The position numbers were made by a program, and so were the translations under genes. From the NCBI RefSeq assembly GCF_000172555.1, contig NZ_ABOX02000006.1, positions 156,518-220,517 of the forward strand: a stretch of DNA of 64,000 nt, read 5' to 3'. The notes below the pieces were generated by a model. The model ran no database searches. It saw only the letters and a program-made list of their open reading frames with translations, and was not told the DNA's origin. Below, in pieces: positions 31,303 through 45,743 of this stretch. The DNA comes from Pedosphaera parvula Ellin514. Lineage in GTDB: Bacteria > Verrucomicrobiota > Verrucomicrobiia > Limisphaerales > Pedosphaeraceae. Each line of letters begins with the position of its first letter. Position 1 is the stretch's first letter.

Positions 31303-31376
31303 TGGCTGCCGAACCTGGTAACGCTCCAGGACTCCCTGCGTCAAAGGCAGGTGTGCCACTTCCACACTCTTCGGCA
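31303..31376 (-). tRNA. Array tRNA-Gln(UUG), aberrant T-loop
   Basis: Acceptor TGCCGAA/TTCGGCA, encoded CCA, anticodon loop CTTTGAC, T-stem CCTGG/CCAGG. T-loop AGCGTTA has G55, and the D-loop GGAAGTG has A then G at 18-19 instead of GG. First member of the minus-strand array. Confidence 0.75.
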
Positions 31377-31379
31377 AAT

Positions 31380-31443
31380 TGGTAGCCCATGATGGTAACT
31401 CTCCACCTTGGGTAGTTTGTAAGACTACGGCTTTAAAATGGCT
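31380..31443 (-). tRNA. Array tRNA-Val(UAC)-like lacking the D-arm
   Basis: Anticodon arm GTAGT CTTACAA ACTAC, T-arm with loop AGAGTTA (G55), CCA encoded. The 5' side keeps only an imperfect acceptor strand (AGCCAT against ATGGGCT) plus a 9-base linker, so there is no D-arm. Its 5' end overlaps the CCA end of the next gene. Probably a decayed copy. Confidence 0.5.
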
Positions 31444-31513
31444 GCCTCGCCTGGCTTTGCTCCAGGACCAGCAGTGTCAGAGACCGCTGTGCTACTGATT
31501 ACACCACGAAGCA
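31439..31513 (-). tRNA. Array tRNA-Gln(CUG), aberrant loops
   Basis: Full cloverleaf; acceptor TGCTTCG/CGAGGCA, anticodon loop CTCTGAC, T-loop AGCAAAG (G55), D-loop AATCAGTA (A18 G19). CCA encoded. Confidence 0.78.
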
Positions 31514-31518
31514 ATGAA

Positions 31519-31592
31519 TGGTCGCCCGGGAAGGTTCTGCCCCTTCGACTGTTGTTTGTAAGACAACCATGATCCTATTTCACCACCGAGCG
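31519..31592 (-). tRNA. Array tRNA-Val(UAC), aberrant loops
   Basis: Acceptor CGCTCGG/CCGGGCG, anticodon loop CTTACAA, T-stem GAAGG/CCTTC with loop GGCAGAA (G55), D-loop AATAGGA (A18 G19). CCA encoded. Confidence 0.78.
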
Positions 31593-31644
31593 TCGTCGTT
31601 GTATTAAATGCGCCATTCGAAATGCGTCACTCGAAACTGAGATT

Positions 31645-31719
31645 TGGTTCCCCCGGCGAGATTTGCACTCGCATCTCACGACTTAAAAGGTCGTTGTTCT
31701 GCTATTGAACTACGGAGGA
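31645..31719 (-). tRNA. Array tRNA-Lys(UUU), aberrant loops
   Basis: Acceptor TCCTCCG/CGGGGGA, anticodon loop CTTTTAA, T-stem GCGAG/CTCGC with loop TGCAAAT: canonical apart from U55 to G. D-loop AATAGCA (A18 G19). CCA encoded. Confidence 0.85.
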
Positions 31720-31820
31720 GTTGAAATTTGCGAATTGCGATTTTGAATTTTGAATGCGGCGAAAACAGTCGCCTGCTTTTCAATCGGCATTCGCAAATCA
31801 AAAATTAAAAAACTTCTGCA

Positions 31821-31902
31821 AACTCCTGGTTGGTCTCTTCCACCAACTAAATGCACCCCGCTATGGTACGAGGCCGCTGGATCTACTTCGCGTTCAGGAG
31901 TT
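31821..31902 (-). tRNA. Degenerate tRNA-like RNA, CAU in an 8-base loop
   Basis: Outer helix AACTCCTG/CAGGAGTT, anticodon-like arm CCTCG TACCATAG CGGGG, T-arm-like GTTGGT GGAAGAG ACCAAC. Nine-base D-loop region and extra bases make it a poor tRNA; it may be a pseudogene or a separate structured RNA. Confidence 0.35.
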
Positions 31903-31914
31903 GCAAATTATTAT

Positions 31915-31989
31915 TGGTGCCCATGGCAGGACTTGCACCTGCACTTGCCAAGTTCTGAGCTTGGTGCCTCTGCATTGGGCTACATGGGC
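31915..31989 (-). tRNA. Array tRNA-Leu(CAG) with short variable region
   Basis: Acceptor GCCCATG/CATGGGC, anticodon loop CTCAGAA, T-loop TGCAAGT (G55), D-loop AATGCAGA (A18 G19). The variable region is only 5 bases, unlike the long arm normal for bacterial tRNA-Leu. CCA encoded. Confidence 0.82.
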
Positions 31990-31998
31990 AAAATTCTT

Positions 31999-32075
31999 TG
32001 GTGCTCCCGGTCAGATTTGCACTGACACTCTGCGGATTTTAAGTTCGTTGCCTCTGCTAATTGGGCTACAGGAGC
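31999..32075 (-). tRNA. Array tRNA-Leu(UAA) with short variable region
   Basis: Acceptor GCTCCTG/CGGGAGC, loop CTTAAAA, T-loop TGCAAAT (G55), D-loop AATTAGCAGA, which is the common AATTGGCAGA with only G18 changed to A. Anticodon stem has two A.C mismatches. CCA encoded. Confidence 0.75.
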
Positions 32076-32084
32076 TGGATAGAT

Positions 32085-32161
32085 TGGTGCCGCGTGAAAG
32101 ACTCGCACTCTCAACATCTCCGTTCTAAGCGGAGCGCCTCTGCTAATTGGGCTAACGCGGC
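32085..32161 (-). tRNA. Array tRNA-Leu(UAG) with short variable region
   Basis: Perfect acceptor GCCGCGT/ACGCGGC, anticodon arm CTCCG CTTAGAA CGGAG, T-loop TGCGAGT (G55), D-loop AATTAGCAGA (A18 G19), CCA encoded. One of the clearest members of the array. Confidence 0.88.
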
Positions 32162-32169
32162 AGCTTGGA

Positions 32170-32193
32170 AATGCCGGTTCTTAAACCGGCATT
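32170..32193. other. Perfect palindrome in an array spacer
   Basis: Arms AATGCCGGTT/AACCGGCATT around a 4-base loop, lying between two array tRNAs. No T-tract follows, so it may be a processing signal or a repeat end rather than a terminator. Confidence 0.55.
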
Positions 32194-32218
32194 CGTAGAT
32201 CAAAAATCCAAAATGAGT

Positions 32219-32294
32219 TGGCACTCCCGACAGGAATTTCGCCTGTAACCTCCGCGTTCGAAGCGCGGCGCTCTATACATTGAGCTACGGGAGC
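32219..32294 (-). tRNA. Array tRNA-Arg(UCG), aberrant loops
   Basis: Anticodon arm CCGCG CTTCGAA CGCGG, T-stem ACAGG/CCTGT with loop CGAAATT (G55, A56). D-loop AATGTATA can place A18 and T19; T19 would then pair with A56, a compensatory change for G19:C56. CCA encoded. It shares its anticodon with the normal tRNA at 8014-8090. Confidence 0.75.
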
Positions 32295-32317
32295 AATTGT
32301 GATTATTAATTTAAATC

Positions 32318-32403
32318 TGGAGCCGACGGAGAGACTCGCACTCTCGTGGGGCAGTGCCCGGCAGTTTACAAAACTGCTGCTGTCGCTGCTGAGCCACGTC
32401 GGC
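32318..32403 (-). tRNA. Array tRNA-Thr(UGU) with a long variable arm
   Basis: Acceptor GCCGACG/CGTCGGC, anticodon loop TTTGTAA, T-loop TGCGAGT (G55). The variable arm is a stable hairpin (GGGC ACT GCCC), a class II feature not expected on Thr. D-loop AGCAGCGA (A18 G19). CCA encoded. Confidence 0.7.
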
Positions 32404-32412
32404 AAATCAAAT

Positions 32413-32736
32413 TGGTGGGCCGTCACGGTAATACTCCGTGTTCTGGGGCATACCGAATGTCGAAAGAAATTTCCGAAAGGCAGGAGGGATTTTGGTTTGA
32501 GGCAAGGCGGAGGCCGCCGGCGCTATCTGAAAGATAACGACAAGGCCGACAACGCCGCCTCAAATCAAAAGCACCCTGCTTTCAACAATTTAATGTTCCT
32601 TCGTAACAGCTTGGTGATCCAAAGTTCCAATGAATCAACTCCTTCACTTCCCTTGTCTTTCCATTTTCCCCTTTCGGAAATTTATTTTGACATTCGGTAT
32701 GAGAGACCGCTGCATCACTGCTAATGCTTACGACCC
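32413..32736 (-). pseudogene. Array tRNA-Met(CAU) split by a mobile-type element
   Basis: 5' half: acceptor GGGTCGT, D-arm GCAT...ATGC, anticodon 5' strand GCGGT and loop start CTCAT. 3' half at 32413-32448: T-arm CACGG AGTATTA CCGTG (G55), acceptor ACGGCCC, CCA. The acceptor halves pair over 7 bases. A 253-base element sits in the anticodon loop. Confidence 0.6.
32449..32701. mobile_element. MITE-like element with about 33-bp terminal inverted repeats
   Basis: Left end CATACCGAATGTCGAAAG..., right end the near-perfect inverse (...GACATTCGGTATG), about 30 of 33 matching. No transposase ORF inside. No clear target duplication could be read. It interrupts a tRNA-Met anticodon loop. An intron is less likely because group I and group II signatures are absent. 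Confidence 0.6.
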
Positions 32737-32742
32737 GAAAGA

Positions 32743-32811
32743 TTCCGGGACGATGGAATCGAACCATCACAGTGAGGTGGGTGATACCCAACTGCGCACC
32801 AGCTTCCCGAA
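32743..32811 (-). ncRNA. tRNA-like RNA with canonical T-arm but collapsed anticodon arm
   Basis: T-stem GATGG/CCATC with normal loop TTCGATT, acceptor-like TTCGGGA/TCCCGGAA with a bulge, and in place of the anticodon arm a tight hairpin TGGGT ATC ACCCA. The GGGTATC word recalls the GGGTTATC of the Y RNAs, so it may be a Y-RNA relative. Confidence 0.45.
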
Positions 32812-32833
32812 AAAAACTCATTACAAAATTCCT

Positions 32834-32901
32834 CGCAGTCCCCGGTGTCGCTCCGGGCAAGCGGTGCATATGAGGCACTGCTGAACGCTGGTTCGACTGC
32901 G
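32834..32901 (-). tRNA. Array tRNA-Met(CAU), compact D-arm, no encoded CCA
   Basis: Acceptor CGCAGTC/GACTGCG, anticodon loop CTCATAT, T-stem CCCGG/CCGGG with loop AGCGACA (G55). The D-arm is only GAAC CAGC GTTC. Unlike its neighbours it lacks an encoded CCA. Confidence 0.65.
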
Positions 32902-32964
32902 ATAAAACCGTCTTAAAATTGTGAATAACTTTCCGTTGAAATTGTAATTCGGCTGAATGATAGT

Positions 32965-36291: not shown

Positions 36292-36369
36292 TGGTGCGGC
36301 AACCGGGAGTTGCACTCGGACGAGCTGCTTGGAAGGCAGCCATGCTCATCTATTAAACATCACTGCCGC
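36292..36369 (-). tRNA. Array tRNA-Gly(UCC), aberrant loops
   Basis: Acceptor GCGGCAG/TTGCCGC, anticodon arm GCTGC CTTCCAA GCAGC, T-stem CCGAG/CCCGG with one mismatch, T-loop TGCAACT (G55), D-loop TTAATAGATGA (A18 G19). CCA encoded. Confidence 0.8.
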
Positions 36370-36375: not shown

Positions 36376-36450
36376 TGGAGTCCGGTAAGAGAATTGCACT
36401 CCTGTAATGCAGCTTTGCAGGCTGCTGCCTAATTACTCGGCCAACCGGAC
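36376..36450 (-). tRNA. Array tRNA-Cys(GCA), aberrant loops
   Basis: Acceptor GTCCGGT/ACCGGAC, anticodon arm GCAGC CTGCAAA GCTGC, T-loop TGCAATT (G55). D-loop AGTAATTA has A18 A19, so unlike most members G19 is also lost. Discriminator T; CCA encoded. Confidence 0.8.
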
Positions 36451-36454: not shown

Positions 36455-37345
36455 AAAGTAAACCTGAGAATACAGTTTTGGTTCGGACTCTTTGATTGGA
36501 TTATACCCTCCATGCGGGAAGGCTTCCCAACGTTTCCACCAAACCAGGCCGAAGCCACAATCTGGTAAGTCCGATAGCTGCCGTTTTATACTGGTGGCAT
36601 TGCCAGTTCACCATTGGATCGCTCGGCTGTCCTCTTACTGTCTGCCTTGCGGGCAGTAAAGGGCTGCGAACCCACCATGCGATTTCAACCAACGTCCTCA
36701 GCTCTTGCGGAGCATCGGACGCCCTGATTATCCCGCAGGATTCAGGGATTAAGCTACTTTCCAATCCAACAGAAGACGCGACTTTGCGTTTAGCCTGATT
36801 TTCAGTCAGGTGCTACAGTTGCCTGCAGCAGCAATCCTACCAAGACGTGCGCGTCTTGCAGCTTCATGATCTTTTGGATCACGCTATACTGCACGCCTTC
36901 TGTGTTTCTCTTGCGGATATTCCACCGAATTTCAAGACTTACGATTTCAGGTTGCCCTGAACCGTTTGCCTCTCATTCTGTCACTCAGCCCTTGATTGCG
37001 GTCTCGGACCAAATGGCTACCCTTATTCCTTAACTGTCGATGTTTGGCGTAAGTGAAGTGCTCGGCGCTACCGTTAGTAAAGAGCTTACAGTGTTACCCT
37101 CAGCTCTCCGTTTTCACTCCATCTTCCAGCATAGCTCACCGCGAATTGCGATAAGCTTACAAGAATTGGGCTTGCATAAGTGGCCTGTCTCCAGGCGCGG
37201 CTCCGTAGGAGGAACTCCGCTTTGACCGGCTTTCACCGGCTTATCTGACGGGATCATGCTCCCGGATCGGTTTCGGAATGTTTCCATCCCGTCCTTATCA
37301 AAAATCAATTTTAAGCTGCAAACGAATGGATAACCACTCGTCTGC
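36455..37345 (-). ncRNA. Large structured non-coding RNA candidate beside rsr
   Basis: Nearly 900 bases with no credible ORF but dense hairpins: CTGCC TTGCG GGCAG (36642), GCTC TTGCG GAGC (36700), CCCTGA...TCAGGG (36722), CCTGA TTTTCAG TCAGG (36793), AAGACG TGCG CGTCTT (36842), TGATC...GATCA (36868), CCGGT GAAA GCCGG, GACGGGAT...ATCCCGTC (37247-37293). Repeated CGCAA and GNRA loops are seen on the minus strand. Size, tRNA-array setting and loop style recall the ornate phage-type RNAs GOLLD and ROOL; strand and identity unproven. Confidence 0.45.
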
Positions 37346-37350: not shown

Positions 37351-39042
37351 TTAATCACTGCGGATAAAATCCGCGATTACCGCCGGAGCGGTTGTATCGA
37401 AACCGACGACGTCCAACATGCCGCGGTCCTTCGGGTCCGCGATCGTGAAGTCGTTCGAGGTCATACCCACCACCACTGCCTTGGCATCTGCCGCGAACTG
37501 GTCGCGGTAATTACGCAAAGCCTGTGAAGGATGAATATTGCCCGCCCAGGTTTCACTGTCGGTGTAGGTCACGAAGCCTGACACATTCACCTTCTGCCGA
37601 CGTGCCCATACCATTGGCAGGGCGCAATCTGTGCCGCCCATTGGAATCTTCTCGATTTCCTTCACGACCTCCGCAAGGCGCATCTTCGGAGAGATGTTGA
37701 CCGGCGTAATGCCCGGTTCACCACCACCCCACTGACCGCCATGCCCGTTCGCTGCCGCCGAGAACCCAACGATAACGTAATCAGGCTCCGTAGCCGCTGT
37801 AATCAAGGACATCGCTGCGCTCGCTTCACGTGCTGACAGGCAGGAGCCCGCAATCTTCGCCATCCCCATGGAACCGCTGACGTCAAGCGCGAGCAAGACT
37901 GGCTTGCCGCACGGTTCGACGTTGCTGAACGTCGCGTAAAACGCTTCGTCCAACGCATCGATGATTGGCTGCACTGGCGACCAACTCAAGCTGCCCTTGT
38001 CGCCGCGACCCTGAGCGTAGATTTTCTCCGCGATCAGGACGGCCATAGGGTGCACACGGGCGCGCTTCAACGCAGTCTGGTCAGACAGCTTTGCAACCAC
38101 CAGCTTGGCAGCTGCGCTCATTGGTTTGAGCAAGCCAACGCTCGTCATCTTGCCAAGGTTGCGGATCATTGCGGTCATCGGCATTTTCTGCAGCAAGGCA
38201 TCCCACACTTCAGCATCGTTCAACCATTCGGTTGGGACGGCTTCGCGTGGCAGGTTGCTTTCCGTGATGAGCTTCAGGATTTCTCCCTTGCCCTTCGCGG
38301 CTTTGGCCTGCTCAAACGCCTGGATTAAGGCTGGCAATTCGCCCACGGCCGCATAGGTCGCTGTGCGTTCCGCACAGTTGACCTTGCGCTTGACCGTGCG
38401 TTCACCCAGTTCATCCTGGCCGGACAACATCCAGCGGAAGATTGCCGCGTGTTCGCGTGAAACTTCTTTTGGATGTGCCAGGCGCAGCAAGTCACCGTGT
38501 GACCAGCCGTCGCGCTGCTGATACTTGATTGCCTGCAAGGCCAATTCGCGTGGTTCCTGGGCATTATACCAGTTGCCAACCGCATTGCGGAGACCGCGTC
38601 CCCAACCGCGCATCGCATTTACATACCCAGCGAAGTGGAAGAGGTGCGTGCCGATGCGGCAGACTTTTGACAGGTTCGCGAAGGCCTTGGTCTTGGCCGC
38701 AACGTCACCGTGAGTTGTCACAAGCGCGAGGGCAAAGATGGCCGGATCATTCTTCGGCGCACGACCAGAGTCGGAAATCTCGACGATGCGATCAACGACA
38801 CGCGCACCATTTTCCTTGATGCAACGGATGATGGCATCGTGATTCTGCTTCACGAGATCGCGTTCGCCGATGTAGTAGGTGCCACCTTCAGCGCCGAGGA
38901 TCAAAAAGCGATCCAAACGCTGCCAGTCGGTCACTTCCCACGAGTAACCACCCGCCGAGTTGCGAACCTGTCCCGAACCCGGGATGGCCTGCGACTGCGG
39001 TGTCGCGCGGCGATTAAAAAGTTTTGAGTAGTTGATTGCCAT
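37351..39042 (-). CDS. rsr: Ro60/Rsr TROVE-domain RNA-binding protein
   Basis: 563 aa. N-terminal TROVE domain of HEAT-like helices forming the RNA-binding ring (residues about 20-365; for example LVKQNHDAIIRCIKENGARVVDRIVEISDSGRAPKN in parts NHDAIIRCI, RIVEISDSGR) and C-terminal VWA-like domain with an intact MIDAS (ALDVSGSMGM, then GGTDCALPM, TYTDSETW). Bacterial Ro binds Y RNAs and 3' ends of misfolded RNA and works with exonucleases or RtcB ligases in RNA quality control. Five Y RNA genes lie directly upstream on the same strand, and the first (39093-39159) is within 51 bases of the start codon. Confidence 0.95.
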   Translation of the reverse strand: MAINYSKLFNRRATPQSQAIPGSGQVRNSAGGYSWEVTDWQRLDRFLILGAEGGTYYIGERDLVKQNHDAIIRCIKENGARVVDRIVEISDSGRAPKNDPAIFALALVTTHGDVAAKTKAFANLSKVCRIGTHLFHFAGYVNAMRGWGRGLRNAVGNWYNAQEPRELALQAIKYQQRDGWSHGDLLRLAHPKEVSREHAAIFRWMLSGQDELGERTVKRKVNCAERTATYAAVGELPALIQAFEQAKAAKGKGEILKLITESNLPREAVPTEWLNDAEVWDALLQKMPMTAMIRNLGKMTSVGLLKPMSAAAKLVVAKLSDQTALKRARVHPMAVLIAEKIYAQGRGDKGSLSWSPVQPIIDALDEAFYATFSNVEPCGKPVLLALDVSGSMGMAKIAGSCLSAREASAAMSLITAATEPDYVIVGFSAAANGHGGQWGGGEPGITPVNISPKMRLAEVVKEIEKIPMGGTDCALPMVWARRQKVNVSGFVTYTDSETWAGNIHPSQALRNYRDQFAADAKAVVVGMTSNDFTIADPKDRGMLDVVGFDTTAPAVIADFIRSD

Positions 39043-39092
39043 ATTTACCTCCTTTCACACCGCCAACCACGGAGTGGATGTTTAAGTGAAGA

Positions 39093-39159
39093 CGCGGACA
39101 AGTTGGATGAACGTGGGATGTTTCGTTTACAGCGATAACCCATGCTCGTTCGGCCCGCG
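39093..39159 (-). ncRNA. Y RNA, minimal form without a tRNA-like module
   Basis: Outer stem CGCGG/CCGCG with Ro-binding motif GCCGAACG on the 5' strand and CAACTTGT on the 3' strand, then the Y-typical word GGGTTATCGC and a short hairpin TGT AAACGAA ACA. No T-arm or acceptor stem. It lies just upstream of rsr and may be part of its leader. Confidence 0.65.
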
Positions 39160-39230
39160 AAAATAATCCGAAGTGGAACCGACGTAATGCTTCAAGTCCT
39201 CACTTCATTTTCTGACTTCTGAATTTAACT

Positions 39231-39338
39231 AATGGGCAAGGGGGACGCGGGATTGCTCTACCACTGAGCTACTCCCCGTTATGGTCGGGGAGATTGGAGT
39301 CGAACCAATGACGGATAACCCGATGTCTTCGGCCCATT
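39231..39338 (-). ncRNA. Y RNA with circularly permuted tRNA module
   Basis: Ro stem AATGGGC/GCCCATT carrying GGCCGAAG (matching the GNCGAANG Ro motif) and CCCTT. Inside: CGGGTTATCC, T-arm ATTGG TTCGACT CCAAT, acceptor 3' strand CTCCCCG then ACCA TAA, then acceptor 5' strand CGGGGAG, D-arm GCTC AGTGGTA GAGC, and the return strand AATCCCG. The 3' half of the tRNA thus precedes the 5' half, joined by a CCA-containing loop, as in YrlA-type RNAs. Confidence 0.85.
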
Positions 39339-39352
39339 AAAAACAAAAAGTA

Positions 39353-39489
39353 TTCACAGGATAAGTGATGAACTGGAGTTTTTTAAGCGTTCTACCACTG
39401 AACTACCCCGGCATCTGGAGCCGGAGGCGGGATTCGAACCCGCGACCACTTCGTTATGAGCGATAATCCAATTGCTTCGACCCTGTGAA
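39353..39489 (-). ncRNA. Y RNA with circularly permuted tRNA module
   Basis: Ro stem TTCACAGG/CCTGTGAA with GTCGAAG and CACTTAT. T-arm GCGGG TTCGAAT CCCGC, acceptor strands CTCCGGC and GCCGGGG linked by a TCCAGAT loop, D-arm GTTC AGTGGTA GAAC. Inner stem AATTGGA/TCCAGTT. The 3' part is covered by the frame of the unknown gene upstream. Confidence 0.85.
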
Positions 39490-40351
39490 AAATTTTAGAG
39501 TAATATTTGATTTTTGTAATCTCGATTGGAAATAGGATGAGACGGCTCACCGGCTTCAAGGCTCGACGGAGCAGCAAAGCAAAATGCCTTGCCGCTCCGT
39601 CGAGCCTTGAACCGCCTCCTTTGGTGAACTCACTGGTTTTCATTTGATTGGACAGTCCATAGCGTCGTAATTCCTTACGTGACAACTGACGCTTCGCGAC
39701 ACAATGCACATAATCACCATACATTTTGCAACTGATGCTGCCATAGACCTGCCTTCCCAGCGCAACATCGTAAGGCGTGGGATTTTGTGTTTCCCTGAAG
39801 AACTCCATCTGACACTCGAACCAGAGCCCATTCAGTTTGATCAATCTCACATTCCGTGATAGCTGACGTTGAGTTTCAGACCGCTGCTGCGCTTCCTTCT
39901 CGAAATAGGTTGCCCGTTTTCTCCACCAGACCTGTTCGCACAGAATGCCCGTTTCTGGATGAACATAGAATGGCTTGCATCTTCCGGCGATCTGGTTTAC
40001 CGGCCCACCGGCCATCCTCCAATTTGAATCGAAGCACCATATTTCTCCTTCATTCATGAAGGTATGGCGGATGACCATCTCCAGCAGATGAAATTTAATA
40101 TGATTGCGCACCACGCTGTCCGGCTTGATGACTTTGCAGGCTTCACTGTAAACCTCGTTCCATGGCCTTCCAACTTGGGAACGGAGCCACCGCCGTAAAG
40201 GTCCAAGATGCTCTCCAAACCATTTGCGTCGAACGTGTGCCCGCTTAATTCCCTGAAATCGCGGACGATCTTCAAAGGGAATGTTCGCCCTGCGATTTTG
40301 TTTGCCGCAACCGCCACCACCACGAGGGCGTTCGACGATGACTTTATGCAT
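39392..40351 (-). CDS. Conserved hypothetical protein with uncertain 3' end
   Basis: About 319 aa from ATG 40351 (an in-frame ATG 12 bases upstream is less likely). N-terminal VIVERPRGGGGCGKQNRR and the segment HVRRKWFGEHLGPLRRWLRSQVGRPWNEVY are the recognisable, basic, probably RNA-interacting part; no known domain. The last 70 codons run through a perfect 15-base palindrome (39559-39608) and into a Y RNA, ending in RVRIPPPAPDAGVVQW, which is tRNA-like sequence read as protein. The true product may therefore end near codon 250. It lies between Y RNAs, so a role with Rsr is possible. Confidence 0.65.
   Translation of the reverse strand: MHKVIVERPRGGGGCGKQNRRANIPFEDRPRFQGIKRAHVRRKWFGEHLGPLRRWLRSQVGRPWNEVYSEACKVIKPDSVVRNHIKFHLLEMVIRHTFMNEGEIWCFDSNWRMAGGPVNQIAGRCKPFYVHPETGILCEQVWWRKRATYFEKEAQQRSETQRQLSRNVRLIKLNGLWFECQMEFFRETQNPTPYDVALGRQVYGSISCKMYGDYVHCVAKRQLSRKELRRYGLSNQMKTSEFTKGGGSRLDGAARHFALLLRRALKPVSRLILFPIEITKIKYYSKIFHRVEAIGLSLITKWSRVRIPPPAPDAGVVQW
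39559..39608 (-). repeat. Perfect palindrome inside the unknown gene's 3' part
   Basis: Arms AAGGCTCGACGGAGC/GCTCCGTCGAGCCTT around a 20-base loop. It may be a terminator-like hairpin or an inserted palindromic element that removed the original stop codon. Confidence 0.75.
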
Positions 40352-40390
40352 ATCTGATCTCATGTTTTGATTTCTTTCCTTGATTTTAAA

Positions 40391-40517
40391 GGCGGATAAG
40401 TTGCGAATTGGACATAGGCGTTCTACTACTGAACTACCCCGGCATTTGGAGCCGGAGGACGGAATCGAACCGTCGACCTCCCGCGTGACAAGCGATAACC
40501 CAATTCATCGACCCGCC
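40391..40517 (-). ncRNA. Y RNA with circularly permuted tRNA module
   Basis: Ro stem GGCGG/CCGCC with GTCGATG and CAACTTAT, inner stem GAATTGG/CCAATTC, word GGGTTATCGC, T-arm GACGG TTCGATT CCGTC, acceptor CTCCGGC/GCCGGGG with loop TCCAAAT, D-arm GTTC AGTAGTA GAAC. Close paralogue of the Y RNA at 39353-39489; D-loop has one G less. Confidence 0.85.
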
Positions 40518-40525
40518 GAAATGTG

Positions 40526-40636
40526 AGACGGACAAAGGGTGAGCTGGGAACCCAGCCATATGGCGGCTGGGGCGGGATTCGAACCCGCTGGTGGATTTCT
40601 CCACGGTGCCGATAACCCAGGCTCTGCGGCCCGTCT
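40526..40636 (-). ncRNA. Y RNA variant lacking the D-arm, with extra variable hairpin
   Basis: Ro stem AGACGG/CCGTCT with GCCGCAGAG and CCCTTTGT. T-arm GCGGG TTCGAAT CCCGC, acceptor CCCAGCC/GGCTGGG with loop GCCATAT. An extra hairpin GTGGA GAAA TCCAC replaces the variable loop, and the acceptor returns straight to the inner stem CCCAGCT without a D-arm. Confidence 0.75.
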
Positions 40637-40680
40637 AAAAATCTCTCTTTAAACCAACATTCAGTCTTGGAGCATGCAAA

Positions 40681-41163
40681 TCATTTGGAAGCAACTAAAG
40701 CTCCGCCGAAACTGAACAACGCGCGAACAATTCCGAAGCCCATAAAGGTGAGCACGAACGCGAAATAAAGGTGGTTGAAAAAAGTCGCCTGGTTTTCCAT
40801 GAACCGTGCGACCCGCTCGCGAAACCCGCGTGTGCACAGACTCTGAGCCGCGATTAAAATAAATAATGCCAGAATAAACAGTCCCATCGGATGGTAGTGC
40901 AAACTTTCACTGAACATACCTCTGATCCCGCAGCTGAGGCTGCGCGTCATCCCGCATCCTGGACATGGCAATCCGGTGACAGACTTGAGCCAACACAATG
41001 TCACTCCGGAGCCATGCGGCGGCGATACCGCAGCGAGCAATAAGCCCAACCACGCGGCGATCACACAATGCTTCCCAAACCAGCGGTTGCTGGCCAGTTG
41101 TGGCTGATTCAGCCAGCAGCGGAACCGCTTCGCATAAATCACAGCTCGAGAATTAAGCTCCAT
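40681..41163 (-). CDS. DUF2752 membrane protein
   Basis: 160 aa. Family signature TGLPCPGCGMTRSLSC with three membrane helices (WLGLLLAAVSPPHGS, GLFILALFILIAAQSL, LYFAFVLTFMGFG). Start at ATG 41163, directly after the stop of the zinc-ribbon gene. These two genes are commonly paired; the function is unknown and there is no evident link to the RNA island. Confidence 0.88.
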   Translation of the reverse strand: MELNSRAVIYAKRFRCWLNQPQLASNRWFGKHCVIAAWLGLLLAAVSPPHGSGVTLCWLKSVTGLPCPGCGMTRSLSCGIRGMFSESLHYHPMGLFILALFILIAAQSLCTRGFRERVARFMENQATFFNHLYFAFVLTFMGFGIVRALFSFGGALVASK

Positions 41164-41164
41164 G

Positions 41165-41854
41165 TTAGTGGCCCAGATCCATAAAATTGATGCCAATGCC
41201 GATGAGGATCCCGAGTCCGTAAAGCAGCTTCAAAGTATCGTTGTCGGAGACCTTGAATACGAAGTAGGTGCAATAGATTGGAATGCAGAGTGCGAGGAAG
41301 CCCGTTCCCACACTTTCCTTGAAGGCGAACACAAGGGCGATAATTTGCACCGTCACCAAGTAAAGAAACGCCACTGCCGCAAAACCTAACATCATGGGGG
41401 GATTATTCCTTCCCAGGAGATATAAAATTCCCAACAACAGTACTACCCCACCCAGATAGGGATACGCAGTCTTATACCAAGGTACATCGTAATTCGGTGC
41501 AGTCGGCTTTCCCAAAGCTGCCGGTCGTCCTGCCACTGTACGCTGACCGGTCGCGAGATTGTAACCGCAGTTGGTGCAAAGCACGGCTCCTTTTCCCATC
41601 CCGGCACCGCACGAGGGACACCCGGACGCAGCCGGACTTGGCGCGGATGCTGGCGCGGATGCCTGGCGTCGCAAAGGCGCGGGCCCGGAAGCCACTGCCG
41701 ATGTGGGAATCGGGATTGGGGCTGGGGCTGCCGCAGCTCCCGGGACGACAAGACTGCCCTTGCAAGCAGGACAATCAATTTGCATCCCCCCATAACCGGT
41801 ATCGGCTGAAATATGCTGCTGGCAATGTGGGCACGAGAATTTAATGTCTGGCAT
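41165..41854 (-). CDS. Zinc-ribbon membrane protein
   Basis: 229 aa from ATG 41854 (upstream frame start at 41914 gives a non-conserved tail). Two zinc ribbons: FSCPHCQQHI with IDCPACKG, and CPSCGAGM with CTNCGYNL, then a Pro/Ala linker and four membrane helices resembling DUF4870-like domains. Regulatory or transport role unknown. Forms a pair with DUF2752. Confidence 0.8.
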   Translation of the reverse strand: MPDIKFSCPHCQQHISADTGYGGMQIDCPACKGSLVVPGAAAAPAPIPIPTSAVASGPAPLRRQASAPASAPSPAASGCPSCGAGMGKGAVLCTNCGYNLATGQRTVAGRPAALGKPTAPNYDVPWYKTAYPYLGGVVLLLGILYLLGRNNPPMMLGFAAVAFLYLVTVQIIALVFAFKESVGTGFLALCIPIYCTYFVFKVSDNDTLKLLYGLGILIGIGINFMDLGH

Positions 41855-42010
41855 AGTCTTCTGATTAGACGTGCTGCTTGGGGTTAATTTTCGTGACAAT
41901 GACAAAAGCTCCAAGCCCAGTCAAATCCCACTTTGTTCCGAACGTGACAATTTGGCCTTTTCATACGCATGCTTATTTGTTCGGGATGACACGCTGAACA
42001 CAAAGAGTTC

Positions 42011-42145
42011 AGACGGGCAAGGGTTGCCACAGGAAATGGGATTCCATACGGGAATCGAACCCGTCCCGGGCTTGGGCCCGAGCGCTCTCTCATGGCGAGC
42101 GTCCTCCCCTCCGTTGGTGGATAACCTGTAAACTTCGGCCCATCT
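42011..42145 (-). ncRNA. Distal Y RNA, rearranged tRNA module
   Basis: Ro stem AGATGGGC/GCCCGTCT with GGCCGAAG and CCCTT, inner ACAGG/CCTGT, word AGGTTATCC, T-arm ACGGG TTCGATT CCCGT. Acceptor reduced to ATGG AATC CCAT. Extra hairpins CGCTC...GAGCG and CGGGC CCAA GCCCG are present, and no D-arm. It lies 3 kb from rsr among array tRNAs. Confidence 0.75.
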
Positions 42146-42164
42146 GTTAAATAGCTACTTGAAA

Positions 42165-42240
42165 TGGTCAGGGCGACGGGAGTTGCACCCGCACAGTCCG
42201 CGTCACAGGCGGAGATGCTTACTGTTACATCACGACCCTG
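42165..42240 (-). tRNA. Array tRNA-His(GUG), aberrant loops
   Basis: Anticodon arm TCCGC CTGTGAC GCGGA, T-stem GCGGG/CCCGT with loop TGCAACT (G55), D-loop AACAGTAA (A18 G19). CCA encoded. Acceptor has a mismatch or bulge near its base. Confidence 0.8.
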
Positions 42241-42250
42241 GAAAATCCAC

Positions 42251-42328: not shown

Positions 42329-42405
42329 TGGTGCTCTCACATGGACTTGCACCATGAACCCTCTCCTTCGCACGGAGAGATGCAGAACTCTTACACCTTG
42401 AGAGC
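42329..42405 (-). tRNA. Array tRNA-Arg(GCG), aberrant loops
   Basis: Acceptor GCTCTCA/TGAGAGC, anticodon arm TCTCC GTGCGAA GGAGA, T-loop TGCAAGT (G55), D-loop AAGAGTTCT (A18 G19). GCG is an unusual arginine anticodon for bacteria, which normally use ACG. CCA encoded. Confidence 0.8.
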
Positions 42406-42501: not shown

Positions 42502-42579
42502 TGGTGTTCCTGGCCGGACTCGCACCGGCTAAACATCTCCTTGAAAGGGAAACCGCTCGGCTACTTGGCGCTCAGGAAC
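42502..42579 (-). tRNA. Array tRNA-Glu(UUC), aberrant loops
   Basis: Acceptor GTTCCTG/CAGGAAC, anticodon loop CTTTCAA, T-stem GCCGG/CCGGC with loop TGCGAGT (G55), D-loop AAGTAGCCGA (A18 G19). CCA encoded. Confidence 0.82.
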
Positions 42580-43219: not shown

Positions 43220-43233
43220 AGCTGAACAAGTAA

Positions 43234-44358
43234 TCATCTGGAGGACCGCGTTTTATAGGTGATCAGTGGGCGCAGACTGGCAATGACGCGGATTAAACCC
43301 TCATCGACCAATGTCTTAATCACCACTTCAATTTTCTTGTAAGCGTCCGGCGCTTCCTCGTAGAGCAAATCGCGATTCTCACAGATGACGCGACTGCCCA
43401 ACTCTGTTTGTGAAAGTTCATCGGGCCGATACCGATCACGAATGCGTGATTTGCTTTCACTACGAGTCCACTTTCGTCCCGCTCCGTGAGCCAGCGACCA
43501 GGCTGCAGCAGGCAGGTCTCCAGTCGGCAACACCAAATAGCTGACAGTTCCGCGCGAACCGGGTATGATCATCGGGCCGGTTTCCGCTGGCGCAGCACCT
43601 TTGCGATGCAGCCACACGGTTTCTCCCGCGAGTTCGTGACGCGTGATACTATTATGCGAACCATCCACTACATTCTCGCACGCTGCGTTCAGTACCGATG
43701 CAAATCGATGTGCAATCAGGCTGCGATTCGCCTTGGCCCAACGCACGGCTTCATCATGCTTTTGTAAATAATCCTTCGCATCCGTTGATTCCACGGCGAC
43801 TCCCGCGTCGCGATGCTGATCGACATAAGCGCGCAGTATCGATTCGCCCAAACCGCGCGAGCCGCTATGAACGAGCAACATCAGTTTCTCCTTCGAGAGG
43901 TTGAGTTTCGCAAATTCAGTTTCATCCTCCACCTTCTCGACCGCTTGCAATTCAGCAAAGTGATTGCCTCCGCCGATGGTGCCCAGAGAATGATCCGAAT
44001 GGGTGGTGGGCAATTCCGCCCGTTGCAACCATTCACCTACATCTCCCTCCCACGGATTCTCCAAATCTGACAGTCTTCCTGCCCAGCGATCCAGCTTCGC
44101 CTTTCTTCGCAACAGGTCGGTTTGCCAGAAACCCATGCCGCAGCCGATATCATTGCCAATCAGATAAGGATAAATCGTTCCGCTGCTGACGAAGGCGGCC
44201 CCGACTGGATGACCTTTGCCAGGGTGCAGGTCGGGAAACCCCACTGCCAACCGCATGCCGGGCAATTCTGCAGTTCGTTTCAACTGATCAACTGCCGCGC
44301 CCTCAATCCAATCCTTCCCGGAGGCAATGAGGCGTATATTTGGTTTCTCGCTATTCAT
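43234..44358 (-). CDS. RtcB-family RNA ligase, second paralogue
   Basis: 374 aa, shorter than the 503-aa RtcB at 25.9 kb. Catalytic frame: FPDLHPGKGHPVGAAFV, IGNDIGCGMGFW (canonical Cys motif), LGTIGGGNHFAELQAV, HSGSRGLGES, and guanylylated-His motif LAHGAGRKWTR; LHRKGAAPAETGPMIIPGSRG is conserved. This matches the RtcB2/PrfH-linked type found in bacterial repair operons. It sits between array tRNAs, the only protein gene in that block. Start ATG 44358 follows a TATAAT-like region near 44388. Confidence 0.93.
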   Translation of the reverse strand: MNSEKPNIRLIASGKDWIEGAAVDQLKRTAELPGMRLAVGFPDLHPGKGHPVGAAFVSSGTIYPYLIGNDIGCGMGFWQTDLLRRKAKLDRWAGRLSDLENPWEGDVGEWLQRAELPTTHSDHSLGTIGGGNHFAELQAVEKVEDETEFAKLNLSKEKLMLLVHSGSRGLGESILRAYVDQHRDAGVAVESTDAKDYLQKHDEAVRWAKANRSLIAHRFASVLNAACENVVDGSHNSITRHELAGETVWLHRKGAAPAETGPMIIPGSRGTVSYLVLPTGDLPAAAWSLAHGAGRKWTRSESKSRIRDRYRPDELSQTELGSRVICENRDLLYEEAPDAYKKIEVVIKTLVDEGLIRVIASLRPLITYKTRSSR

Positions 44359-44391
44359 TCAGTTCAAATCGATTGTTTCTATTATATAATA

Positions 44392-44466
44392 TGGCCCCCG
44401 AAGTTGGAATCGCGCCAACGTCTCAGCTTCTTCAGAGCCGCGCTAATCTCTCTCAGCTATTCGGGG
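44392..44466 (-). tRNA. Array tRNA-Phe(GAA), aberrant loops
   Basis: Acceptor CCCCGAA/TTCGGGG, anticodon arm CGGCT CTGAAGA AGCTG, T-stem GTTGG/CCAAC with loop CGCGATT (G55), D-loop AGAGAGATTA (A18 G19). CCA encoded. Confidence 0.8.
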
Positions 44467-44470
44467 AAGT

Positions 44471-44544
44471 TGGTCCTTTCGCGTGGTAACGCTCCACGTT
44501 CTCTCGCTTATCAGGCGAGTGCTCTGCTTTTGAGCTACAAAAGG
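44471..44544 (-). tRNA. Array tRNA-Ile(GAU), aberrant loops
   Basis: Acceptor CCTTTTG/CGAAAGG, anticodon arm CTCGC CTGATAA GCGAG, T-stem CGTGG/CCACG with loop AGCGTTA (G55), D-loop AAAAGCA (A18 G19). Its 5' end overlaps one copy of a 24-base inverted repeat. CCA encoded. Confidence 0.82.
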
Positions 44545-44557
44545 TGCTTGCGCACGG

Positions 44558-44785
44558 CCACCGCCAAGGAATGTTTTCCGACCTACCTCGGCGGTGGTTG
44601 CGGGGGAGTTGCATTTCAAGCCGTGTTCTTGAAAGGCAAAAGCCGGACGGGTTTGAAGACAAGTCCCTTGGCTCGCTTGGCCGGTGTAAATTTACGAACC
44701 GGCTTATAGGCTCTCCTGAACAAAAGTTGGCTCTGATATCGGATTACAGGTCTCACAGGATTTCCTTTCGTTAATGGTTAAGACA
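44558..44785. other. Structured array segment without a closable tRNA
   Basis: Hairpin CCACCGCC/GGCGGTGG (44558-44597), then TTTCAAG AACACGG CTTGAAA (44611-44635 region, minus strand) and GCCGG...CCGGC near 44690. It may hold decayed tRNAs; an Asp(GUC)-like anticodon region is suggested around 44655 but no cloverleaf could be closed. Confidence 0.4.
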
Positions 44786-44789
44786 AAAG

Positions 44790-44876
44790 TGGCGGTTGGG
44801 GCAGGACTTGCACCCGCATAGGTTTTACCCTCACTCGATTTTCAAGACCGGGACAATTCTATTCTGTCACCCAACC
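44790..44876 (-). tRNA. Array tRNA-Ser(UGA), class II, aberrant loops
   Basis: Acceptor GGTTGGG/CCCAACC, anticodon loop CTTGAAA, long variable arm as expected for Ser, T-stem GCGGG/CCTGC with loop TGCAAGT (G55), D-loop AATAGAA (A18 G19). CCA encoded. Confidence 0.8.
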
Positions 44877-44880
44877 GAGA

Positions 44881-44956
44881 TGGTGCTTCCGGCGGGACTC
44901 TCACCTGCATCGATGGACTTAGAAGATCCACGCTCTGGTAATTGAGCTACGGAAGC
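44881..44956 (-). tRNA. Array tRNA-Arg(UCU), aberrant loops
   Basis: Acceptor GCTTCCG/CGGAAGC, anticodon loop CTTCTAA, T-loop TGAGAGT (G55 and A56), D-loop AATTACCA (A18 C19). Both 18:55 and 19:56 are altered. CCA encoded. Confidence 0.8.
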
Positions 44957-44965
44957 ATGACTAAA

Positions 44966-45039
44966 TGGCTGCCGGACCTGGACTCGCACCAGGACAGGAT
45001 GCTTAACAGGCATCTGTGCTACTTTGACACCACCCGGCA
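44966..45039 (-). tRNA. Array tRNA-Asn(GUU), aberrant loops
   Basis: Acceptor TGCCGGG/TCCGGCA, anticodon arm GATGC CTGTTAA GCATC, T-stem CCTGG/CCAGG with loop TGCGAGT (G55), D-loop CAAAGTA (A18 G19). CCA encoded. Confidence 0.85.
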
Positions 45040-45045
45040 GTAAAT

Positions 45046-45120
45046 TGGTCAGCGCGGCAGGACTTGCACCTGCGGTCACTCCGTCCCAAGCGGAGCATGT
45101 TGCTCCCACACTACGCGCTG
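45046..45120 (-). tRNA. Array tRNA-Pro(UGG), aberrant loops
   Basis: Acceptor CAGCGCG/CGCGCTG, anticodon arm CTCCG CTTGGGA CGGAG, T-stem GCAGG/CCTGC with loop TGCAAGT (G55), D-loop GGGAGCA (A18 G19). CCA encoded. Confidence 0.85.
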
Positions 45121-45166
45121 TTTGCCCCGGCTGATTTGGCAGGATACGGGGACTTTGGTTTTGTAG

Positions 45167-45206
45167 AGATGGAGTTGTTTTCGATTCCTTGGTATCGATC
45201 TCCATC
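45167..45206. other. Hairpin in array spacer
   Basis: Arms GATGGAG/CTCCATC with an inner TCGAT...ATCGA pairing. Between tRNA-Pro and the degenerate tRNA; possibly a processing site or small RNA. Confidence 0.45.
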
Positions 45207-45217
45207 GAAGATTCTGA

Positions 45218-45283
45218 CGCCTCCGGAGGGACTTGCACCCTGGTGGCCGTGCGCAAGCACCTTTTCTATTCAGCTACGAAGGC
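45218..45283 (-). pseudogene. Degenerate array tRNA, chimeric anticodon region
   Basis: Acceptor GCCTTCG/CGGAGGC and T-loop TGCAAGT (G55) are intact, but the anticodon stem is broken (GTGC TTGC GCAC) and no CCA is encoded (TCA instead). The broken part is the 24-base inverted repeat shared with 44539-44562, so the gene looks rearranged. UGC (Ala) might be read in the loop. Confidence 0.5.
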
Positions 45284-45289
45284 AAAAAA

Positions 45290-45379
45290 TGGTGGACAGT
45301 GTTGGTAATGCTCCAATTCGTCGCTTCCGACTTTATTTTATGACACCCGATTTACAGTCAGGTAACCGGATCACTGTCC
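45290..45379 (-). tRNA. Array tRNA-Tyr(GUA), class II, lacking the D-arm
   Basis: Acceptor GGACAGT/ACTGTCC, anticodon arm CCTGA CTGTAAA TCGGG, variable arm with hairpin GTCG GAAG CGAC as expected for bacterial Tyr, T-loop AGCATTA (G55). Only ten bases (GATCCGGTTA) join acceptor and anticodon stem, so there is no D-arm. CCA encoded. Confidence 0.72.
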
Positions 45380-45388
45380 TTTTGAAAT

Positions 45389-45466
45389 TGGTAGCGGGGA
45401 TGGGAATCGCACCCATCTAAATGAGTTTATGAGGCTCATCTCTGTACTTTAGTCGAGTTCCCCGCA
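45389..45466 (-). tRNA. Array tRNA-Met(CAU), aberrant loops
   Basis: Acceptor TGCGGGG/CCCCGCT (first pair mismatched), anticodon loop CTCATAA, T-stem ATGGG/CCCAT with loop TGCGATT (G55), D-loop ends AAAGTACA with A18 G19. CCA encoded. Confidence 0.75.
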
Positions 45467-45475
45467 GTAAATAAA

Positions 45476-45551
45476 TGGTGGAGGCTGACGGGTAACGCTC
45501 CCGTTTAAACCTGCTTGCAAAGCAGGTGCATCACTTTTCTGCCACGCCCCC
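45476..45551 (-). tRNA. Array tRNA-Ala(UGC), aberrant loops
   Basis: Anticodon arm CCTGC TTTGCAA GCAGG, T-stem ACGGG/CCCGT with loop AGCGTTA (G55), D-loop AAAAGTGA (A18 G19). One extra base between T-stem and acceptor. CCA encoded. Confidence 0.75.
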
Positions 45552-45554
45552 CAA

Positions 45555-45660
45555 ATGCGATTTACAAATCGCTCGAGTAAAATTGGCAAGCCGCCTCCGT
45601 GCTGCCCGGAGCAAGGTGAATTTTGGAGATTCTCCTGCACGGCTGGTGCGCGGCTTGGAA
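45555..45660. ncRNA. Structured RNA candidate in the array
   Basis: GCGATTT/AAATCGC hairpin followed by nested stems AAGCCGC/GCGGCTT and CCGTGC/GCACGG enclosing GGAG/CTCC. No T-arm, no ORF, so it is neither tRNA nor Y RNA of the usual shape. Confidence 0.45.
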
Positions 45661-45669
45661 TTATAATAA

Positions 45670-45743
45670 TGGAGCGGCTGCCGGGAATCGTACCCGGACG
45701 TTCTCCCTGGCGAGAAGACATTCTGCTGTTAAATCACAGCCGC
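45670..45743 (-). tRNA. Array tRNA, probable Trp(CCA), with A55
   Basis: Acceptor GCGGCTG/CAGCCGC, T-stem CCGGG/CCCGG with loop TACGATT, so position 55 is A, not G. D-loop AACAGCAGA keeps A18 G19. The anticodon loop (CGCCAGG or six-base GCCAGG) lacks U33, so CCA (Trp) or GCC (Gly) are both possible. CCA end encoded. First gene of the array in the direction of transcription. Confidence 0.6.

What the first reader, a model, noticed from the sequence alone, without database searches (positions are those of the whole stretch)
31303..45743. A minus-strand tRNA array in which U55 is G and G18 is A
About 27 tRNA-like genes have good cloverleaves, mostly encoded CCA and intact U33, but their T-loops read TGCAAGT, TGCGAGT, TGCAAAT, AGCGTTA and similar, so T54/C56 are mostly kept while U55 becomes G. 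Around 19 of them also read A-G instead of G-G at D-loop positions 18-19 (for example AATTAGCAGA for the usual AATTGGCAGA). Positions 18 and 55 contact each other in tRNA, so this looks like a coordinated replacement of the G18:psi55 pair by A18:G55. Such tRNAs could not carry psi55 or be TruB substrates and may be poor in normal translation. The ordinary tRNA-Arg(UCG) at 8014 is canonical. I know no described set with this swap, but I could not search for one.
Basis: partly seen in the sequence, partly recalled or inferred. Interest (0 to 1): 0.95.

Follow-up and report, generated by a model that had tools for sequence, protein, structure and literature searches.

The report
Phage-linked tRNAs with swapped elbow pair
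A bacterial DNA stretch, like related phage DNA, carries a large second set of tRNA genes in which two letters that lock the bend of nearly all tRNAs (G18 and U55) are replaced together by another pair (A18 and G55), likely so that these spare tRNAs keep working when the cell's ordinary tRNAs are attacked.

Summary
In the window 19 of 20 cleanly called array tRNAs have G55, one A55; outside the array 40 of 41 tRNAs of the genome have U55 with G18-G19. In 12 loci found through a neighbouring protein, blind to the loops, 115 of 116 array tRNAs have G55. Over 224 distinct tRNAs with unambiguous D-loops there are two states: A18:G55 (111) and G18:U55 (106), 7 others; both occur coupled inside single arrays too. 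Stems covary, discriminator bases mostly fit the anticodon, and TruB is present in 13 of 13 genomes tested. A single-contig genome has 32 of 32 G55 tRNAs for all 20 amino acids. The arrays sit with an HNH endonuclease and often RtcB; the window adds RlaP, an RNA ligase, Ro60, Y-like RNAs and GOLLD. Phage contigs carry such arrays, one beside a portal gene. Best reading: a phage-spread back-up tRNA set in an RNA-repair island, its elbow recoded so that something that reads the normal elbow misses it. The swap is shown by sequence; charging, expression and the attacker are not. Main rival: compensated drift.

The parts
31303..31376 (-). tRNA-Gln(TTG), A18, T-loop AGCGTTA (G55)
31380..31432 (-). 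3' part of a tRNA (anticodon TAC), T-loop AGAGTTA (G55); no 5' half seen beside it
31439..31513 (-). tRNA-Gln(CTG), A18/G55
31519..31592 (-). tRNA-Val(TAC), A18/G55
31645..31719 (-). tRNA-Lys(TTT), A18/G55; numbering confirmed by the Rfam alignment
31915..31989 (-). tRNA-Leu(CAG), G55, short variable loop
31999..32075 (-). tRNA-Leu(TAA), G55
32085..32161 (-). tRNA-Leu(TAG), A18/G55, short variable loop
32219..32294 (-). tRNA-Arg(TCG), G55 with A56
32318..32403 (-). tRNA with anticodon TGT and a long variable arm, A18/G55
32413..32736 (-). tRNA whose halves are separated by a long hairpin insert near the anticodon loop; T-loop AGTATTA (G55)
   Evidence: sequence; the insert folds as one hairpin
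36292..36369 (-). tRNA-Gly(TCC), A18/G55
36376..36450 (-). tRNA-Cys(GCA), G55
36461..36899 (-). GOLLD RNA
   Evidence: RF02032, 203.7 bits, cut-off 150
37351..39042 (-). Ro60 protein (TROVE + Ro60 vWA)
39085..42150 (-). six Y-RNA-like genes (near 39085-39165, 39225-39345, 39360-39490, 40385-40525, 40515-40640, 42000-42150); five carry a T-arm with the ordinary U55
   Evidence: (YrlA and Deinococcus Y models, below curated cut-offs, for four of them) and reading of the sequences
42165..42240 (-). tRNA-His(GTG), A18/G55
42329..42405 (-). tRNA-Arg(GCG), A18/G55
42502..42579 (-). tRNA-Glu(TTC), A18/G55
43234..44358 (-). RtcB RNA ligase of the 'release_rtcB' type (TIGR03073)
44392..44466 (-). tRNA-Phe(GAA), A18/G55
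44471..44544 (-). tRNA-Ile(GAT), A18/G55
44790..44876 (-). tRNA-Ser(TGA), A18/G55
44881..44956 (-). tRNA-Arg(TCT), G55 with A56
44966..45039 (-). tRNA-Asn(GTT), A18/G55
45046..45120 (-). tRNA-Pro(TGG), A18/G55
45218..45283 (-). tRNA-like gene, T-loop TGCAAGT (G55)
45297..45379 (-). Tyr-like tRNA (GTA), T-loop AGCATTA (G55)
45389..45466 (-). tRNA-Met(CAT), A18/G55
45479..45551 (-). tRNA-Ala(TGC), T-loop AGCGTTA (G55)
45670..45743 (-). tRNA-Gly(GCC), A18 with A55 (the one exception)
28949..29533 (-). HNH endonuclease, the steadiest protein companion of these arrays
27902..28702 (-). SPFH/Band_7 protein
25926..27437 (-). second RtcB RNA ligase
25067..25807 (-). RNA ligase (PF09414)
23952..25076 (-). 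HD + AAA_33 protein, kinase/phosphatase-like
23033..23950 (-). RlaP, RNA-repair nucleotidyltransferase family
22226..23014 (-). second RlaP

Best explanation
This is an array of about 27 tRNA genes in nearly all of which U55 is G, paired with A18 in place of G18; the array was likely spread by phages and likely serves as a back-up tRNA set that an elbow-reading attacker (a nuclease or toxin) would miss, next to genes predicted to mend cut tRNAs. Shown by sequence: the paired swap, its recurrence in other genomes and in phage contigs, covarying cloverleaf stems, mostly fitting discriminator bases, and neighbouring RNA-repair genes. Inferred: the array is expressed and charged; A18:G55 holds the elbow as G18:psi55 does (G55-C56-R57-A58 reads as GNRA, which can make the same kind of turn); without U55 and G18 the tRNAs lie outside TruB and Gm18 modification and outside the reach of a factor that needs those letters. 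When ordinary tRNAs are cut or blocked in a phage, toxin or stress conflict, RtcB, the RNA ligase and RlaP would mend some of them and the recoded set would keep translation going.
For: Loop-blind sampling: 12 loci found through Ro60 (the window, 10 labelled Verrucomicrobia, 1 labelled Proteobacteria) have G55 in 115 of 116 array tRNAs, and A18 in 35 of 35 with 7-nt D-loops. Two states: A18:G55 111, G18:U55 106, other 7, of 224; in virus loci found through the HNH protein 22 A18:G55 and 30 G18:U55, no crossed case, of 52. In five loci of G389's phylum, which mix both states, 16 of 16 G55 tRNAs with 7-nt D-loops are A18 and 8 of 8 U55 tRNAs are G18. Folding kept: 18 Ile(GAT) genes pair in 97.9% of cells, 19 of 21 pairs with double changes, 0 of 500 shuffles as high. 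Discriminator base fits in 218 of 274, shuffled mean 113.6, maximum 137 (reference = this genome's ordinary tRNAs). A single-contig genome has 32 of 32 G55 tRNAs covering all 20 amino acids, followed by HNH, a sigma factor, RtcB, Band_7 and RlaP. RtcB lies within 20 kb of the array in 9 of 18 array genomes, RlaP in 5 of 18; the window has two RtcB, an RNA ligase, a kinase-like protein and two RlaP. HNH is at 14 of 16 arrays found by the RNA model. Phage link: L166 has 31 of 33 G55 tRNAs, RtcB and HNH beside a portal gene; L158 24 of 24 on a contig with phage nucleotide-metabolism genes. Not TruB loss: TruB in 13 of 13. Precedent for escape: phage tRNAs with anticodon-loop changes (PMC10264068; abstract start and passages).
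Against: No attacker that reads 18:55 is identified; the escape described for phage tRNAs concerns the anticodon loop (PMC10264068). The anticodon loops here are not untouched: 153 of 235 G55 tRNAs differ in the loop from this genome's ordinary isoacceptor, mostly at 32, 37 or 38, and 37 of 296 have C33 (many come from other genomes, so part of this is species difference). So the elbow need not be the feature under selection. Nothing shows expression or charging. RtcB is not near the array in 9 of 18 genomes and RlaP not in 13 of 18. Ro60 is in 0 of 12 model-found arrays of the window's phylum, though clearly in 2 of 4 of the other phylum, and GOLLD in 2 of 387 genomes, one above the cut-off, so these look like accessories. 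Many phage and plasmid arrays keep the normal elbow (194 of 198 U55). Other core letters drift (U8 in 214 of 296; 48, 54 and 58 also vary), which fits relaxed constraint as well. Discriminators fail in 56 of 274, notably Gly (18 of 21).
Confidence: 0.45

Rival explanations
1. Compensated drift: redundant tRNAs on mobile arrays are freed from letter-specific constraints, and A18:G55 is simply the second stable solution for the elbow, kept by RNA folding and by common descent.
For: 8:14, 15:48 and 54:58 also change in the G55 tRNAs, with pairing kept above shuffles, and anticodon loops vary too. The nearest isoacceptor from another locus has the same state in 663 of 837. Mixed arrays exist.
Against: Drift alone would not keep arrays uniform: 32 of 32, 27 of 27 and 24 of 24, 115 of 116, while 54:58 takes more than six states. 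Pairs of opposite state with 75% or more stem identity exist (123 comparisons, some with ordinary tRNAs), so switching happens.
Confidence: 0.3
2. Modification-independent elbow: phages use a pair that folds without psi55 or Gm18, so that tRNAs made in a burst need no TruB or TrmH.
For: G55 cannot become pseudouridine; GNRA-like turns form without modification (recalled, no call). Arrays are phage-linked.
Against: Chromosomal arrays lie in genomes that have TruB (13 of 13); phage arrays examined here often keep U55 (129 of 217 distinct tRNAs in the HNH virus loci).
Confidence: 0.12
3. Non-translational tRNAs: aminoacyl donors, decoys for nucleases, or cargo of GOLLD or Ro60 particles.
For: Odd isoacceptor shapes (short-armed Leu, long-armed TGT tRNA); GOLLD and Ro60 in this locus.
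Against: Broad anticodon sets (31 different in one genome) and fitting discriminators point to decoding; Ro60 is in 0 of 12 model-found arrays of this phylum and GOLLD in 2 of 387 genomes.
Confidence: 0.1
4. Pseudogenes or a misaligned T-loop.
For: One 5'-less fragment and one interrupted gene in the window; array genes mostly score lower with Rfam's model than ordinary ones.
Against: Stem covariation, Rfam alignment in register, encoded CCA in 269 of 296.
Confidence: 0.03

Closest known systems
tRNA array units of mycobacteria, their plasmids and phages (PMC5966550, PMC6582537; passages read)
   Same: Dense arrays of many isoacceptors, with an HNH endonuclease and sometimes GOLLD, thought to be horizontally acquired; one such cluster also has a tRNA-Leu with a short variable loop (PMC6582537).
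   Different: The word T-loop does not occur in either main text; a mycobacterial plasmid array fetched here keeps U55 throughout (L108). In the passages I saw, RtcB, RlaP and Ro60 were not named as partners.
Phage tRNAs with anticodon-loop changes that evade anticodon nucleases (PMC10264068, passages read)
   Same: Mobile tRNAs proposed to replace attacked host tRNAs, with protective changes.
   Different: There the changes lie in the anticodon loop; here a tertiary pair of the elbow is exchanged across most isoacceptors (anticodon loops vary as well).
RNA-repair systems with RtcB and RlaP in bacteria and jumbo phages (PMC7824862, PMC6514570; passages read)
   Same: RtcB, ATP-grasp RNA ligase and RlaP, in phages together with tRNA genes.
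   Different: No recoded tRNA elbow is mentioned in the passages read.
tRNA-Pyl and mitochondrial tRNAs without G18/psi55 (PMC7609411, passages read)
   Same: Elbow letters G18, G19 or T-psi-C missing.
   Different: There the elbow is remodelled or absent; here the ordinary cloverleaf keeps a one-for-one alternative pair over many isoacceptors.
YrlA-type Y RNAs with a tRNA-like module (RF02553)
   Same: Y-like genes in the same locus carry a tRNA-like part.
   Different: Their T-arms keep U55, 5 of 5 on reading, unlike the neighbouring tRNAs; Rfam scores are below the cut-off.

Membership tests
Ordinary bacterial tRNA | cloverleaf with conserved stems | tested here: met
Ordinary bacterial tRNA | G18-G19 and U55-C56 elbow letters | tested here: not met
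   19 of 20 G55 in the window; 269 of 292 in 27 related loci, the window included
Ordinary bacterial tRNA | aminoacylated and used by the ribosome | not testable with these tools
   indirect only: discriminator fit 218 of 274
tRNA array unit | dense run of many tRNA genes with HNH endonuclease | tested here: met
   about 27 genes in 14.4 kb; HNH 28949-29533; HNH at 14 of 16 arrays found by the RNA model
RNA-repair gene cluster | RtcB with RlaP and an RNA ligase | tested here: met
   for the window; not near every relative
GOLLD RNA (RF02032) | score above the curated cut-off | tested here: met
   203.7 bits against 150
Bacterial Ro60 (Rsr) | TROVE and Ro60 vWA domains | tested here: met
   but NCBIfam NF041674 gives 526.8 bits against a cut-off of 900
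YrlA Y RNA (RF02553) | score above the curated cut-off | tested here: not met
   41.5, 36.3 and 33.3 bits against 69; they resemble Y RNAs only
Phage-borne element | phage structural genes beside the array | tested here: inconclusive
   portal gene beside a G55 array in L166; none among the 23 window proteins scanned with Pfam

The most novel reading that the evidence does not exclude
A18:G55 is a second, orthogonal tRNA elbow code: phages, and bacteria that took over their arrays, run a parallel full tRNA set with it, because an undiscovered and widespread weapon reads or cuts the normal G18:psi55 elbow.
Probability: 0.3. Interest if true: 0.97.

Novelty: new variant of a known kind. Interest (0 to 1): 0.88.

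Why it matters
Psi55 is called universally conserved in a review of the tRNA elbow (PMC4810234, passages read). Here whole sets of tRNAs, not single oddities, use a different coupled pair, in several genera and in phage contigs. This gives a ready two-state system to ask why nearly all life keeps G18:psi55, whether ribosomes, RNase P and synthetases accept another elbow, and why phages carry so many tRNAs. If the evasion reading holds, it points to an unknown defence or toxin aimed at the tRNA elbow, and to a natural tRNA set for orthogonal translation.

Tried and rejected
TruB loss as the cause: rejected, TruB in 13 of 13 array genomes tested. Local mutation bias: unlikely, since five Y-like T-arms in the same locus keep U55. 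Ro60 or GOLLD as the reason for the swap: unlikely in general, since Ro60 is in 0 of 12 model-found arrays of this phylum (but clearly in 2 of 4 of G389's phylum, L160 and L162), and GOLLD in 2 of 387 genomes and in 0 of 15 further loci at Rfam's cut-off. Presence in other phyla: in the phyla of G388 and G390 the hits (2 of 376 and 1 of 380 genomes) were ordinary U55 tRNAs; the E-value was strict, so weaker cases could be missed. A protein search with RtcB 43234-44358 in viral contigs gave 10 pattern matches and no relative. An RNA-repair survey (PMC5062991), the GOLLD array paper (PMC7549688) and the ICE tRNA paper (PMC6103686) were not held.

Sampling limits: the model R1 was trained on 35 G55 tRNAs and one A55 tRNA, so arrays found with it lean towards G55; the loop-blind samples are the Ro60 loci and the HNH virus loci. 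Of 80 genomes hit at 1e-16 the best locus was fetched for 30: 13, the window's own included, have G55 tRNAs and 17 have U55 only; the other 50, lower-scoring, were not examined. Some loci are from metagenome bins, and L004 is labelled Proteobacteria; L007 and L031 come from one bin; a further Ro60 locus, L020, had no called tRNA. L018/L094 and L031/L095 overlap; pooled counts were deduplicated by sequence, the count was not. The GG-in-D-loop count is approximate; the 7-nt D-loop counts are the clean ones. Proximity counts for RtcB and RlaP were read by me from coordinates on one contig; draft genomes may hide links.

Full report
What was checked. A finder that scores stems, spacing, U8, U33 and CCA, and no D- or T-loop letters, was run on the window (first version). 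At score 19.5 it tRNAs between 31303 and 45743, all on the minus strand; 19 have G at T-loop position 55 and one has A. Seven further tRNA-like genes, incomplete or missed at that score, also have G there on reading. In the 8 called genes with a 7-nt D-loop, where positions 18 and 19 cannot be confused, it is A18-G19 in 8 of 8. Rfam's own alignment gives the same register.

Control in the same genome. Rfam tRNA hits in the genome number 59: 16 in the array, 43 elsewhere. The 43 were fetched; in two low-scoring ones my finder saw no cloverleaf. Of the other 41, 40 have U55 and G18-G19. The exception, G000:C62:3156-3230, has A18 and G55 and lies about 0.5 kb from an HNH gene of the array's family.

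Conservation, sampled without looking at loops. Loci of Ro60 relatives were fetched. Twelve loci with such arrays (the window, ten labelled Verrucomicrobia, and L004, labelled Proteobacteria) hold 116 called array tRNAs: 115 G55, 1 A55; of 35 with 7-nt D-loops 35 have A18, and 19:56 is G:C in 32 and U:A in 3. One more Verrucomicrobia locus, L020, had no called tRNA. Ro60 loci of Armatimonadota (L011) and Ardenticatenaceae (L014) have U55 in 6 of 6 and 13 of 13 at score 19.5. A locus labelled Deltaproteobacteria (L018) is mixed.

Conservation, sampled with a model. A covariance model R1 built from 36 array tRNAs was run on 387 genomes of the phylum: 80 had a hit at 1e-16. Of 30 whose best locus was fetched, 13 (the window's own included) have G55 tRNAs and 17 only U55. 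Larger stretches show 27 of 27, 32 of 32 (a single-contig genome), 17 of 17, 13 of 13 and 12 of 12 G55, and mixed arrays such as 5 G55 with 3 U55 or 8 with 2. In G389's phylum 4 of 377 genomes had hits at 1e-18, and all four fetched loci are mixed arrays with G55 members. In two other phyla the 3 hits from 756 genomes were ordinary tRNAs.

Two coupled states. Over 905 distinct called tRNAs, 224 have unambiguous 7-nt D-loops: A18:G55 111, G18:U55 106, others 7. In five loci of G389's phylum 16 of 16 G55 are A18 and 8 of 8 U55 are G18. In 77 new virus loci found through the HNH protein, 30 have called tRNAs and 9 have two or more G55; their 52 unambiguous cases are 22 A18:G55 and 30 G18:U55, none crossed. 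In 27 loci pooled (292 distinct tRNAs; 269 G55, 21 U55, 2 A55) the looser count of GG in the D-loop gives 261 without and 8 with GG for G55, 2 and 19 for U55 (Fisher p 1.6e-21; related sequences are not independent). 19:56 mostly stays Watson-Crick when it changes (214 G:C, 6 U:A, 2 C:G, 2 mismatched of 224), and 54:58 moves between U:A, A:U, C:A, G:G and rarer pairs.

Are they working tRNAs? Eighteen Ile(GAT) genes pair in 97.9% of cells, with double changes at 19 of 21 pairs, and no shuffle of 500 reaches that. The discriminator base is one used by this genome's ordinary tRNAs for that amino acid in 218 of 274, against a shuffled mean of 113.6 and maximum of 137. Against: Gly, Glu, His, Phe, Arg and Met deviate often, U33 is kept in 259 of 296, and 153 of 235 anticodon loops differ from this genome's ordinary isoacceptor. 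The single-contig genome's array has 31 anticodons for all 20 amino acids; the window's 20 called genes cover 15 amino acids. TruB is present in 13 of 13 array genomes, so the swap does not come from losing the psi55 synthase.

Surroundings. The minus strand of the window carries tRNAs, RtcB, Y-like RNAs, Ro60, GOLLD and more tRNAs, then HNH, Band_7, a second RtcB, an RNA ligase, an HD+AAA_33 protein and two RlaP. An HNH relative is at 10 of 12 model-found arrays of this phylum and at 4 of 4 of G389's phylum; Ro60 at 0 of those 12 and, clearly, 2 of those 4 (a third match is weak). RtcB lies within 20 kb in 9 of 18 array genomes and RlaP in 5 of 18 (my reading of coordinates). In the single-contig genome the array is followed by HNH, a sigma factor, RtcB, Band_7, DUF4145 and RlaP. 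RlaP is predicted to restore lost nucleotides before ligation (PMC7824862, passages).

Phage link. L166, from a 27.5 kb IMG/VR contig, has 33 called tRNAs (31 G55), then an ATPase, a TIR protein, RtcB and HNH, and about 6 kb further a portal and an S49 protease gene. L103 and L158 (136.8 kb contig) have 28 of 28 G55, with thymidylate synthase and nucleotidyltransferases of phage families; no terminase of PF03237 was found in that record. L172 (211 kb record, with terminase and ribonucleotide reductase) has a mixed array. Another virus array, L088, keeps U55 in 25 of 26 but holds U19:A56 and, on reading, C19:G56 cases. That the bacterial arrays came from phages is inference.

Interpretation. 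Two facts need explaining: why almost only two coupled states, and why many arrays are uniform. The first fits structure: G55-C56-R57-A58 reads GNRA, which can make the same turn as UNR, and A18 would have to accompany G55; this is reasoning from recalled structures, not a measurement. The second fits selection on the whole set by something that reads the elbow. The neighbouring repair genes make tRNA damage the most likely setting. Known phage tRNAs are proposed to escape anticodon nucleases by anticodon-loop changes (PMC10264068); anticodon loops vary here too, so both parts may be shaped by attack, but only the elbow pair is exchanged in one coordinated way. No elbow-reading attacker is shown. 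The main rival is compensated drift plus descent.

What is in print. Ten searches of the held library were made. One for papers holding tRNA, A18, G55, D-loop and T-loop gave none, and one for phage, tRNA genes, G18, U55 and T-loop gave only a mitochondrial review, seen as a listing. Papers outside the library may exist. The review PMC4810234 calls psi55 universally conserved.

Noticed in passing
window 39085-42150: Six Y-RNA-like genes next to Ro60; several have the 3' half of a tRNA-like module before its 5' half, closed by a short loop, and keep the ordinary U55 T-arm (one has A18 with U55).
   Followed up: partly
window 32413-32736: A tRNA gene split by a long hairpin near the anticodon loop; a mobile repeat or an intron-like insert, in a locus with RtcB ligases.
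   Followed up: no
window 36760-36845: A tRNA-like stretch (anticodon-like arm with GAA) inside the GOLLD RNA.
   Followed up: no
L088 (IMG/VR contig): A virus tRNA array that keeps U55 in 25 of 26 but has some 19:56 pairs as U:A or C:G and some other 54:58 pairs: a different way of changing the elbow.
   Followed up: partly
mixed arrays (21 loci, some overlapping): Cys is G55 in 11 of 11, while Ser (0 of 8), Tyr (0 of 4) and Leu (3 of 20), the long-armed classes, mostly stay U55.
   Followed up: partly
window 31915-32161 and 32318-32403: Array tRNA-Leu genes have short variable loops, while a tRNA with the Thr anticodon TGT has a long variable arm, the reverse of ordinary bacterial tRNAs (recalled rule).
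   Followed up: no
G55 tRNAs of the related arrays: The 8:14 pair also changes (U:A to A:U or G:G more than in shuffles), though A:A is the commonest departure.
   Followed up: partly
window 39392-40363: A 323-aa open frame with no Pfam match that overlaps a Y-like RNA; 31-aa fragments recur in L005 and L009.
   Followed up: no
L166 6738-8437: A histidine-kinase-like ATPase and a TIR-domain protein between a G55 tRNA array and RtcB on a phage contig.
   Followed up: no
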